A stretch of 64,000 bases of DNA, from the NCBI GenBank assembly GCA_001799675.1, contig MGTX01000028.1:25730-89729 (forward strand), read 5' to 3'. A program made the translations under genes and the position numbers. Origin of the DNA: Elusimicrobia bacterium GWA2_66_18 (GTDB taxonomy: Bacteria > Elusimicrobiota > Elusimicrobia > UBA1565 > UBA9628). Below are positions 41,220 to 50,987 of this stretch, one piece after another; the stretch's first letter is position 1; each line of letters opens with the position of its first letter. Below the pieces are notes generated by a model. The model was not told the origin of the DNA. It did not search any database and worked only from the letters and a program-made list of their open reading frames with translations.

Positions 41220-41897
41220 TTAGGCCCCAAGCCCGTGCTTTTGGAAGTGCTCGCGGATATGAGCCAGGTGGCGGGACATCTGCTTCTGAGAGATGTCGAG
41301 GTGCCGGGCGAGCTTCGAGGCGTTGCCCCGTGTGCCCGGCAGCAGGTAGGCGATGACGGCGAGCTGGATGGGAAGGCCGAGAAGGGCCTTGTGAAGTTGC
41401 TCTTTGAGTAGGCCTGCCTCCGGGTTCTCGGACACCGATGGAATGGGGCCGGTCGCGCCGCGCGGCCCGTCTTCGGCCATGCGTTCCTGGTCTTCCAGGG
41501 CGTCCAATGAGACATGGAGTTGCGCTTCTTTCTTCTTCTGGCGCTTCATCTCCAGGGCGATGTACTTGAGCCCGGAGTAGAATATCCGCCGCCGGTCTTC
41601 GTCCGTCTCGGCTGCCCAGAACTTCTCCACCCAGGCCTTCGGCCTGAGCTGCTTATCGGTTATGCCCCAGGATTCCCAGACGATCTCCCGGACCAGTTTA
41701 TCGAGAGCCTCACGGAAGGGGGCCGGAACGCCGGTGACACCCTTCATGACATCGGCAATCGCGCCGTCGATCACGCCGCGCGTCTTGTCCAGCCATTCGC
41801 GGGTGACGAAAGCAGCCGGCGGCCCCCGGCGCTCGATCTCATCAAGGACCTGTCCTACAAGTTCCGCCAGGACGGCATCGACGGGCGTCTTTGTCAT
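41220..41897 (-). CDS. sigma-70 region-4-like HTH protein
   Basis: HVSLDALEDQERMAED...GLPIQLAVIAYLLPGTRGNASKLARHLDISQKQMSRHLAHIREHF. Confidence 0.55.
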   Translation of the reverse strand: MTKTPVDAVLAELVGQVLDEIERRGPPAAFVTREWLDKTRGVIDGAIADVMKGVTGVPAPFREALDKLVREIVWESWGITDKQLRPKAWVEKFWAAETDEDRRRIFYSGLKYIALEMKRQKKKEAQLHVSLDALEDQERMAEDGPRGATGPIPSVSENPEAGLLKEQLHKALLGLPIQLAVIAYLLPGTRGNASKLARHLDISQKQMSRHLAHIREHFQKHGLGA

Positions 41898-42226
41898 TTG
41901 CCGGGCCGTGAGCAGGCCAGGTCCCGGCGCTGAGCCCGGCCCTGCGGCAGATAGGCGTTCATGAAGCTCTTGAAGAGCGCGCCGTGGTTGGGAATGAGCA
42001 GGTGGAGCAGCTCGTGGGCGATGACCCGGTCCTGGAAGGAGGCGGGCTCGGACAGCAGATCGGCGCTGAAATAGACTCGGCCAGCGGTGGAGCACGAGGC
42101 CCACTTGTTGCGCATGGCCTGGACATAGACGCGCTTGGGTTGGACGCCGATCTTGGTGGCCCAGCGGTCGACGCGCCGCTTGAAGAGCGGTGTAGGAACC
42201 GGCTTGGCTCTCAGCGCTGTGGTCAT
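41894..42226 (-). CDS. YgjP/DUF45-like M48-type metallopeptidase
   Basis: KWASCSTAGRVYFSADLLSEPASFQDRVIAHELLHLLIPNHGALF. Confidence 0.85.
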   Translation of the reverse strand: MTTALRAKPVPTPLFKRRVDRWATKIGVQPKRVYVQAMRNKWASCSTAGRVYFSADLLSEPASFQDRVIAHELLHLLIPNHGALFKSFMNAYLPQGRAQRRDLACSRPGK

Positions 42227-49092: not shown

Positions 49093-49097
49093 GTTGA

Positions 49098-50987
49098 TTA
49101 GCGAAATTTATATCCAAGCCCTGAAAAAACGGTTTCCAGTTCATCTTCTTGGGTAGCCTCTTCTTTTCTAAGCTTGGCGAGATCTTCGAGAATGTCTTGA
49201 ATGTTCCTGTGCTCGGTCGCTCCGACCGTCTCGATGTAGCGTGCCGGAGAAAGGTTGGAATCACCTTTGCGGCCAACTTCTTCTGCGGGCATGAGCTTGG
49301 TAAGGCGTTCGATTTCTTTGTTTGAGTGAAAGGCCCCCGCGACCTTATCAATGGCGGTTTCTGTCATGAAATTCTTGGGACGCCCTTTCTCAAACTCCCC
49401 GCTGGCGTTAATCATAAGGACCTTGCCCTTGCGGTCTTTGGGCTTGGCGTTGTTGAGGACGACGATGATGCCAGCGGCAGTGGTATTGTAGAAGAGGTTG
49501 TCGGGTAAAAGGATCACGGCCTCGATGAGATCCTTGTCTAGGAACCATTCCCGGATGGACTTTTCCTTATTGTCGCCTTGGTTGCCGCTCCCGCGGCTGG
49601 CGGCTCCGGTGTCAAGGACAATAGCGGCGCGCCCCTTATCCTTCATCGAGGCGTGGATGTGCTGGAGCCAAGCCCAGTCAGCGCTCTGCCGGGGTGCGAA
49701 ACCGCCGCGATTAGAAAAGCGATCCAGCGGGTCCTTCTCGTAATTCTCTTCCGGGGAGAAGTTGTTCTGGTTCCACATCGGGTTGGTCACCACGATGTCG
49801 AAGCGCTTGAGTCGTCCGCCTTCACGAAATTTCGGATTGGTCATGGTATTGCCGCGGACGATCTCGCTTTCCATGTCGTGAATGACCATATTCATGCGGG
49901 CGATGGCGAAGCTCGCCCCTGTCAGTTCCTGGCCGTAGAGTTTGAGCGGCTTGGCCACGCGGCCCTCGCGCTCAGCCAAGTCTAGCTCGCATTTGACCAG
50001 GAGGCCGCCGGAGCCGCAGCAGGGGTCGTAGGCTTCCTCGCCCTGTTTGGGGTGCAGTATCTTCGCGATGAGGCGGCCGACTTCGCGCGGCGTGAAGAAC
50101 TCCCCGGCGCTTTGGCCCTGGCCTTCGGCAAATTTGCGCAGGAGGTACTCGTAGGCCCGGCCGAGGAAGTCCGGCTCCACGTCGTTGAGGCCCAAGCGGT
50201 TCTTGCTGAGAATCTCGATGAGGCGGGCCAGGGCGTTGTCGCTGAGTTCGCGCTCGCCGTTGCGGGTCTCGTTATAATCCACGATGTCGATGACGCCCTG
50301 AAGCGAGTCGTTGGCCTTGGCCACGGCCCGGATCGCGGTGCTCACTAGCTCGCCAAGCGTCTTGGGCGCGCGTCCACCGGGCCAGGACTTTCTTCCACTT
50401 ATAACGGCCCAGCGCGCCTCGGCCGGTATGTAGAAGCGGACCAGGCTGTGGTCGGCCTCGACATTCTCGAGCGCGGTGACCTCATTGCCGAAGGTCTTAA
50501 TGAGGCGGGAAATCTCATCCTCGAAAACATCGGAAAGGCGTTTGATGAAAACGAGCGGGAGGATGTAATCCTTGAACTTCGGGGCATCCTTCTCGCCGCG
50601 GATGGAGCAGGCGGCCTGCCAGAGCAGGCTCTCCATCGTCTTGAGGTCGAGAATGGCGATGGGCCTGCGCACCTGAAGGGGTTCATCGGAGGCGGCCTCT
50701 TCGTCCGGTTCCTCCATAGTCATGGGCGGACGGCGCACATGGATCGGCTCATCATCGAGCTCGGCCTCGGGGAAAAATTCCGCTATAATGTCTGCGCACT
50801 CGTTTCGCTTGCTCAGCACGAACTGGCGGATGATGTTGAGCACCGCGGCCGTAGGCTGGGTCTTGCCGTTCTCCCAGCGGTTGATCGTCGGGTAGGAGAC
50901 ATGCAGCGTGCGGGCGAGATCGGCTTGGCGTAGTTCCAGGCGGTCTCGGATGGCCTTGAGCAGTTTGGGGAGTTGTTTCTTGTTCAT
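49098..50987 (-). CDS. hsdM: type I DNA methyltransferase subunit M with N-terminal Xre-type HTH
   Basis: HTH RQADLARTLHVSYPTINRWENGKTQPTAAVL; SAM motif YDPCCGSGGLLV; catalytic TNPMWNQ. Confidence 0.95.
   Translation of the reverse strand: MNKKQLPKLLKAIRDRLELRQADLARTLHVSYPTINRWENGKTQPTAAVLNIIRQFVLSKRNECADIIAEFFPEAELDDEPIHVRRPPMTMEEPDEEAASDEPLQVRRPIAILDLKTMESLLWQAACSIRGEKDAPKFKDYILPLVFIKRLSDVFEDEISRLIKTFGNEVTALENVEADHSLVRFYIPAEARWAVISGRKSWPGGRAPKTLGELVSTAIRAVAKANDSLQGVIDIVDYNETRNGERELSDNALARLIEILSKNRLGLNDVEPDFLGRAYEYLLRKFAEGQGQSAGEFFTPREVGRLIAKILHPKQGEEAYDPCCGSGGLLVKCELDLAEREGRVAKPLKLYGQELTGASFAIARMNMVIHDMESEIVRGNTMTNPKFREGGRLKRFDIVVTNPMWNQNNFSPEENYEKDPLDRFSNRGGFAPRQSADWAWLQHIHASMKDKGRAAIVLDTGAASRGSGNQGDNKEKSIREWFLDKDLIEAVILLPDNLFYNTTAAGIIVVLNNAKPKDRKGKVLMINASGEFEKGRPKNFMTETAIDKVAGAFHSNKEIERLTKLMPAEEVGRKGDSNLSPARYIETVGATEHRNIQDILEDLAKLRKEEATQEDELETVFSGLGYKFR

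What the first reader, a model, noticed from the sequence alone, without database searches (positions are those of the whole stretch)
41220..50987. Thoeris-like pair embedded inside a type I restriction-modification operon
Minus-strand order is HTH-HsdM, HsdS, TIR-like ThsB, TM-Macro ThsA, TM coiled-coil, HsdR, M48 peptidase, sigma-like HTH. HsdS/ThsB gap is 1 bp and ThsB/ThsA overlap by 4 bp (ATGA), so TIR signalling and R-M should be co-transcribed. Type II Thoeris is described as TIR ThsB making a nucleotide signal sensed by a Macro-domain ThsA with TM helices. Nesting between hsdS and hsdR could make ThsAB a back-up triggered when restriction fails.
Basis: partly seen in the sequence, partly recalled or inferred. 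Interest (0 to 1): 0.85.

Follow-up and report, generated by a model that had tools for sequence, protein, structure and literature searches.

The report
Thoeris pair inside restriction-modification operon
A bacterial DNA-cutting defence operon carries, between two of its own genes, a second and different anti-virus alarm system (type II Thoeris); close relatives carry other genes, several of them defence genes, in the same slot, so the operon works like a plug-in rack, of which other examples with other cargo are already known.

Summary
On the minus strand of an Elusimicrobiota MAG, a complete type I R-M operon (HTH-HsdM, HsdS, HsdR, then a YgjP/M48-type peptidase) encloses a genuine type II Thoeris pair: ThsB TIR (PADLOC 242 bits) and TM-macro ThsA (Pfam ThsA_Macro 166 bits), with key residues kept. 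Genes abut or overlap. The TM coiled-coil gene is not part of Thoeris; it occurs in related R-M operons without Thoeris.
In relatives in the phylum the hsdS-to-hsdR interval holds other genes (DUF6119, HEC-01AB, a PrrC-type AAA_13 ATPase, TIR-like effectors, HNH/DUF3800, or nothing). Against the closest relative, DNA similarity stops 73 bp before the hsdM stop and resumes 14 bp before the coiled-coil start: hsdS+thsB+thsA is the replaced block. The operon lies on a 20.9-kb island between perfect 48-bp tRNA-Met 3'-end repeats, with two tyrosine recombinases. A promoter plus TATCA/TGATA palindrome precedes hsdM in 8 of 12 loci, suggesting that HTH-HsdM regulates its own operon (inference).
Embedding of defence genes in type I R-M loci is published (DarTG2/RptR, TgvAB, PrrC); Thoeris as cargo I did not find reported. 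The 'back-up when restriction fails' idea is possible but untested.

The parts
49098..50987 (-). HsdM with N-terminal XRE-type HTH (629 aa), first gene of the operon
   Evidence: Pfam N6_Mtase 297 bits, HsdM_N 82, HTH_3 41; HTH-like N-terminus kept in the 11 related HsdM compared
50988..51028 (-). Predicted promoter TTGACT-17-TATGCT (51028-51000) overlapped by the palindrome GTATCAG..CTGATAC (51013-50988), putative HTH-HsdM operator
   Evidence: Promoter scan; a TTGAC + TATCA/TGATA arrangement upstream of hsdM in 8 of 12 loci, 0.04 expected from shuffles
47887..49092 (-). HsdS (401 aa, two target-recognition regions)
   Evidence: Methylase_S 115 bits, 2 stretches
47376..47885 (-). ThsB, TIR protein (169 aa); F8, catalytic-type E88, C-terminal tail Y159/Y164
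   Evidence: PF08937 55.8 bits; PADLOC ThsB1 242 bits; full-length match to solved EcThsB2 8v6t, 113 bits
46438..47379 (-). ThsA, TM + macro-domain effector (313 aa)
   Evidence: PF20016 166 bits; PADLOC ThsA1 206 bits; matches solved ThsA macro domains 9uuz, 8r66, 8v6q, 8v6s; hydrophobic helix 27-45
45115..46371 (-). TM coiled-coil protein (418 aa): long helix 115-267, two TM segments 291-309 and 320-338; R-M-associated, not Thoeris-specific
   Evidence: weak SLATT_1, 20.5 bits against a cut-off of 41
42223..45108 (-). HsdR (961 aa), nuclease and helicase motifs present
   Evidence: TIGR00348 469 bits; GSGKT, DEAH, ExK motifs
41894..42226 (-). YgjP-like (M48-type) metallopeptidase, overlapping the hsdR stop
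   Evidence: PF01863 87 bits; follows hsdR in the related operons wherever the fetched stretch reaches past hsdR
46386..49170 (-). Replaced block: hsdM tail + hsdS + thsB + thsA, with no DNA similarity to the closest relative, which has hsdS' + DUF6119 here
   Evidence: blastn against L003: similarity 41943-46385 (83.7%) and 49171-53535 (81.4%), none between
32590..53533 (.). 20.9-kb integrated defence island carrying the operon
   Evidence: Perfect 48-bp direct repeat at both ends; two recombinases, AbiE and FokI-domain genes inside
32590..32637 (+). Left end repeat: 48 bp of a tRNA-Met 3' half (reverse complement)
   Evidence: its inner 32 bases occur only twice in the genome
53486..53533 (+). 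Right end repeat, identical to the left one
52413..53381 (-). Tyrosine recombinase A
   Evidence: Phage_integrase 121 bits
37167..38108 (-). Tyrosine recombinase B
   Evidence: Phage_integrase 131 bits
51059..52408 (+). Divergent 449-aa protein of unknown function sharing the hsdM intergenic region
   Evidence: No Pfam match; conserved at the same place in the closest relative L003

Best explanation
This is most likely a working type II Thoeris pair carried as replaceable cargo in the hsdS-hsdR slot of a type I R-M operon on a tRNA-integrated defence island. The genes are probably transcribed from the hsdM promoter; HsdMSR restricts unmodified DNA, while ThsB senses infection by its own route and makes an ADP-ribose-type signal (His-ADPR in studied systems), and ThsA binds it with its macro domain, clusters through its TM part and damages the membrane. 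Nesting gives shared expression and shared transfer rather than a direct trigger. Shown here: anatomy, family identity, conserved residues, cargo turnover, island ends. Inferred: transcription as one unit, control by HTH-HsdM, activity, signal identity, trigger.
For: Profiles far above cut-offs; full-length match to EcThsB2 including the tail and E88 in 121 of 121 sequences; macro pocket residues mostly kept relative to solved ThsA. The slot holds other genes in relatives: DUF6119, HEC-01A/B, PDC-S06 (AAA_13), TIR/Nuc_deoxyrib_tr-like effectors, HNH_5 + DUF3800, or nothing. Sharp block replacement. Promoter-palindrome upstream of hsdM in 8 of 12 loci; no minus-strand terminator-like site within. 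ThsA stands outside R-M operons elsewhere, on viral contigs, plasmids and one chromosome.
Against: No other held genome has ThsA in an R-M operon (1 of 345 genomes in the phylum has ThsA at all), so selection for the combination is not shown. [quoted passage not shown] The signal, its trigger and transcription as one unit were not tested.
Confidence: 0.72

Rival explanations
1. R-M guard: ThsB senses inhibition or disassembly of the Hsd complex by phage antirestriction and fires ThsA, as PrrC does for EcoprrI.
For: Nested position and likely co-expression; PrrC precedent (PMC12707154); a PrrC-type AAA_13 protein sits in the same slot in relative G024.
Against: ThsA is found outside R-M operons in all 19 other loci examined. 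ThsB is 61-69% identical to nearly all of its best hits with no extra domain for binding Hsd. A staphylococcal Thoeris of the NAD-depleting type senses phage capsids (PMC12578639, abstract seen).
Confidence: 0.15
2. Three-part module: the TM coiled-coil protein is an extra Thoeris effector or regulator.
For: Next to thsA; two TM segments and weak similarity to SLATT membrane domains; both recurring metagenome contig lengths carry it with ThsA.
Against: It sits in R-M operons with no Thoeris: G015, G032 and three betaproteobacterial loci; PF20016 was not found in eight genomes that carry the coiled-coil family. Similarity to L003 resumes at it, so it belongs to the scaffold. No fold match.
Confidence: 0.06
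3. Passive passenger: the cassette arrived by recombination and is silent or decaying.
For: Mobile island; one occurrence among held genomes of the phylum.
Against: Both ORFs are intact with conserved key residues, tight gene spacing and an SD-like GGAG before thsB; variants with 83-89% identical ThsB/ThsA remain full length.
Confidence: 0.07

Closest known systems
RptR-RMS-DarTG2-M48 (RRDM) defence island of E. coli E2348/69 (PMC12255303)
   Same: Two-gene non-R-M defence cassette exactly between hsdS and hsdR; M48-family peptidase gene downstream; DNA-binding regulator with palindromic sites before hsdM; the authors call the site a potential recombination hotspot
   Different: Cargo there is DarTG2 (or an ATPase + putative RNA-binding pair), not Thoeris; its regulator is a separate 79-aa protein, here an HTH fused to HsdM; different phylum
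TgvAB embedded in the V. cholerae VPI-2 type I R-M cluster (PMC11411939)
   Same: Two-gene anti-phage system nested in a type I R-M cluster; its protection does not depend on HsdR restriction
   Different: Cargo is a GmrSD-like type IV restriction system
Type II (TM-macro) Thoeris, e.g. E. coli CFT073 and B. amyloliquefaciens Y2 (PMC11204291)
   Same: TIR ThsB + TM-macro ThsA; homologous over the ThsA macro domain and all of ThsB
   Different: Other ThsA loci examined lie outside R-M operons; E. coli CFT073 has two ThsB proteins, here one; position 8 is F, not Y
PrrC in the EcoprrI type IC locus (review PMC12707154)
   Same: Abortive effector nested in a type I hsd locus
   Different: Anticodon nuclease activated by R-M inhibition; no such link is shown here

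Membership tests
Type II Thoeris | ThsA with macro domain of the ThsA_Macro family | tested here: met
   PF20016 166 bits against cut-off 25, profile positions 1-183 of 183; solved ThsA macro domains matched
Type II Thoeris | N-terminal transmembrane segment on ThsA | tested here: met
   Strong hydrophobic segment 27-45 (mean KD 1.99); no second segment passed the 1.4 threshold used
Type II Thoeris | Adjacent TIR ThsB with catalytic Glu | tested here: met
   PF08937 55.8 bits; E88 aligned to EcThsB2 E89, invariant in 121 of 121
Type II Thoeris | Macro pocket residues for the ADPR-type ligand | tested here: met
   EcThsA D83, N96, D100, G218, H259 keep identity; T220 to S, S217 to T, N114 to Q, S175 to A by alignment; mapping done by hand, L113 and K262 not kept or not placed
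ThsB subfamily 9 (EcThsB2-like) | Active-site tyrosine at position 8 | tested here: not met
   F8 here; among 121 sequences 89 have F and 32 have Y
ThsB subfamily 9 (EcThsB2-like) | About 20-residue C-terminal tail with Y159 and Y164 | tested here: met
   Y159 and Y164 at the same numbers; full-length alignment
Type II Thoeris | His-ADPR made by ThsB activates ThsA and blocks phage | not testable with these tools
   Needs biochemistry and a phage assay; described in PMC12948488 citing Sabonis et al. 2025
Type I R-M system | HsdM, HsdS and HsdR all present with motifs | tested here: met
   the HsdM motif IV reads NPMW
RptR/RRDM-type island | Embedded two-gene cassette between hsdS and hsdR plus peptidase gene downstream of hsdR | tested here: met
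RptR/RRDM-type island | Separate RptR repressor | tested here: not met
   No separate small regulator gene before hsdM; the HTH is fused to HsdM
PrrC-type R-M guard | Embedded effector activated by inhibition of the R-M enzyme | not testable with these tools
   Needs an experiment

The most novel reading that the evidence does not exclude
HTH-HsdM is both the methyltransferase subunit and the repressor of its operon through the conserved TATCA/TGATA site, so phage attack on HsdM (or its depletion) raises expression of whatever defence cargo sits in the hsdS-hsdR slot, here a TIR signalling pair. The R-M enzyme would then be the expression switch of a plug-in immune cassette.
Probability: 0.22. 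Interest if true: 0.72.

Novelty: new variant of a known kind. Interest (0 to 1): 0.5.

Why it matters
It adds Thoeris to the short list of defence systems found nested in type I R-M operons, shows in one bacterial clade how often the contents of the hsdS-hsdR slot change, and locates the replaced block to within tens of bases in one pair of genomes. The promoter and palindrome before HTH-HsdM give a concrete, testable way in which R-M enzymes could set the expression of abortive-infection cargo. Genes of unknown function in the slot (DUF6119, the 236-aa and 288-aa proteins, the DUF4365 protein) become candidates for defence tests.

Tried and rejected
(1) Search for other Thoeris-in-R-M cases: none in 345 phylum genomes or in 387 genomes of the class of a betaproteobacterial MAG, nor in 19 other ThsA loci on viral contigs, plasmids and one chromosome; no phage record hit. 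(2) Coiled-coil gene as a Thoeris part: rejected because it occurs with other cargo or none. (3) Fold search with the coiled-coil model: no match with E below 0.001. (4) hsdS and cargo always move together: rejected, since G047 and G034 share HEC-01 cargo at 86% DNA identity while most of hsdS differs. (5) ARAGORN's tRNA-Phe at 32592-32685 is taken as a false call on the repeat.

Full report
OBSERVATION. Profile searches confirm HTH-HsdM, HsdS, ThsB_TIR (PF08937, 55.8 bits, cut-off 21.2), ThsA_Macro (PF20016, 166 bits, cut-off 25), HsdR and a YgjP-like metallopeptidase. PADLOC gives ThsB1 242 bits and ThsA1 206 bits. The 418-aa coiled-coil protein has no Pfam family above cut-off and only a weak SLATT_1 match (20.5 bits, cut-off 41). 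Spacing: hsdS/thsB 1 bp; thsB/thsA overlap GTGA (GTG start) or TGATG (ATG start), not ATGA; thsA/coiled coil 66 bp; coiled coil/hsdR 6 bp; hsdR/ygjP 4-bp overlap.

THE THOERIS PAIR. ThsB aligns over its full length with solved EcThsB2 (8v6t, 113 bits), including the C-terminal tail with Y159 and Y164 that PMC11204291 describes for ThsB subfamily 9. The catalytic Glu (EcThsB2 E89) is E88 and invariant in 121 of 121 sequences; the EcThsB2 active-site Tyr8 is Phe here, and F in 89 and Y in 32 of those 121 sequences. So it is EcThsB2-like but fails that one subfamily feature. ThsA matches four solved ThsA macro-domain sequences. Mapping of EcThsA ligand residues by hand through: D83, N96, D100, G218 and H259 are kept; S217, T220, N114 and S175 are T, S, Q and A. 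The macro domain is preceded by a hydrophobic helix (27-45). In studied type II systems His-ADPR made by the TIR protein makes ThsA oligomerise and disrupt the membrane (PMC12948488).

THE R-M CHASSIS AND ITS SLOT. HsdR relatives in the phylum led to further operons, fetched and read. Between hsdS and hsdR they carry: G015 DUF6119 + 99 aa + coiled coil; G032 coiled coil + HNH_5 + DUF3800; G047 and G034 HEC-01A/B (AAA_21 + DUF4276-like); G024 PDC-S06 (AAA_13, the PrrC-type ATPase) + RmuC + RhuM family + a 164-aa protein; G213 nothing; G168 and G170 nucleoside-deoxyribosyltransferase-like (TIR-like) proteins with a 288-aa or a DUF4365 protein; G162 a TIR-effector-like protein (PADLOC 37.7 bits); G336 a 236-aa protein; G238 ORF6N + Schlafen-AlbA + YhcG nuclease. 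G216 is broken (hsdR in two ORFs) and was left out. Between hsdM and hsdS, several carry Abi_2, AlbA or AAA_14/DUF4143 genes. The peptidase gene follows hsdR in all of these except G024, where the fetched stretch ends at hsdR.

THE REPLACED BLOCK. blastn of the window against the closest relative (L003, same genus, HsdR 93% identical) gives two long blocks in this region, 41943-46385 (83.7%) and 49171-53535 (81.4%), with no similarity between. The replaced 2785 bp hold the last 73 bp of hsdM, hsdS, thsB and thsA; similarity resumes 14 bp upstream of the coiled-coil start. Hence the coiled-coil gene belongs to the scaffold in this pair. In G047 versus G034, cargo is shared (86%) while most of hsdS differs, so hsdS and cargo can also change separately.

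THE COILED-COIL GENE. The family was traced in genome contigs. Its closest members lie in or next to R-M operons beside hsdS without Thoeris (L003-L007). AlphaFold2 gives a long helix (115-267) followed by the two hydrophobic helices, with modest confidence (pLDDT 75, pTM 0.36). I treat it as an R-M-associated membrane protein of unknown function.

THE ISLAND. A perfect 48-bp direct repeat lies at 32590-32637 and 53486-53533; its sequence is the 3' half of a tRNA-Met, seen intact in L003 at 2314-2390. Its inner 32 bases occur only at these two places in the 2.79-Mb genome even with 3 mismatches allowed. A 14-mer, ACTAACCTTGTGGT, lies just inside each repeat (32702 and 53393; 0.06 expected in the window); its 11-base core occurs only there in the genome. 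Inside are two tyrosine recombinases, AbiEi/AbiEii, a FokI-cleavage-domain protein and an AlbA_2 protein. L003 has a similar repeat pair and related recombinases on both sides of its operon. This is an integrated defence island.

CONTROL. The scan finds TTGACT-17-TATGCT just before hsdM, overlapped by the palindrome TATCAG-N12-CTGATA. A TTGAC plus TATCA/TGATA pattern occurs upstream of hsdM in 8 of 12 operons, against 0.04 expected from dinucleotide shuffles. I chose the pattern after looking at these sequences, and the operons are related, so the figure overstates the evidence. The recognition-helix region S[YF]PTINRWE is the same in those 8 and in G024, and differs in the other three, which fits co-variation of regulator and site. 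That HTH-HsdM binds this site is an inference. No terminator-like site was found on the minus strand within the operon, and the other minus-strand promoter-like sites lie inside hsdS, thsA and the coiled-coil gene; the one in hsdS (48495-48467) could in principle serve thsB.

COMPARISON WITH KNOWN SYSTEMS. PMC12255303 describes DarTG2 between hsdS and hsdR in EPEC, with an M48 peptidase gene downstream and a repressor, RptR, before hsdM, and suggests a recombination hotspot. PMC11411939 describes TgvAB nested in a type I cluster. PrrC is the classical nested guard. Literature searches for Thoeris with R-M or nesting terms gave no report of Thoeris in this position, but the library lacks most subscription papers and bioRxiv, including the preprint on embedded defences cited in PMC12255303. 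So the kind is known; the cargo and the fused regulator are new in this combination as far as I can see.

MECHANISM. Most likely ThsAB acts by its own sensing route and gains shared expression and transfer from the nest. The guard model is open. The distribution argues for independence: none of the 19 other ThsA loci examined is in an R-M operon (7 viral contigs and 1 chromosome; 11 plasmids; in one plasmid, L102, a TaqI-like specificity-domain gene lies some 3.6 kb away).

Noticed in passing
L085, L088-L090 (IMG/VR contigs): ThsB-ThsA pairs sit between what look like terminase and portal genes on related prophage-like contigs, and beside apparent structural genes on L085, so the pair also travels as phage cargo; the phage genes were judged by eye only.
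   Followed up: partly
window 30500-30547 (+): Sub-threshold abiF RNA match (35.6 bits, gathering 37); blastn also matches 30494-30557 to the hsdM-hsdS interval of L004.
   Followed up: no
L078 11714-12607, L079 11690-12655, L080 9018-9908: Abi_2 genes lie between hsdM and hsdS in three related operons, a second cargo position.
   Followed up: partly
window 33785-35086 and 35117-36822: FokI-cleavage-domain protein next to an AbiEi/AbiEii pair inside the same island.
   Followed up: partly
window 32590-32685 and 53486-53562: Neither tRNA-Met repeat copy in this genome is called as an intact tRNA-Met gene, and no other close copy was found in the assembly; the intact gene may be on a missing contig.
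   Followed up: partly
window 51059-52408: 449-aa protein without Pfam match, divergent from hsdM and kept at the same place in L003.
   Followed up: no
window 39712-39759: Perfect 22-bp inverted repeat with a 4-bp loop between the AlbA_2 gene and the 516-aa gene.
   Followed up: no
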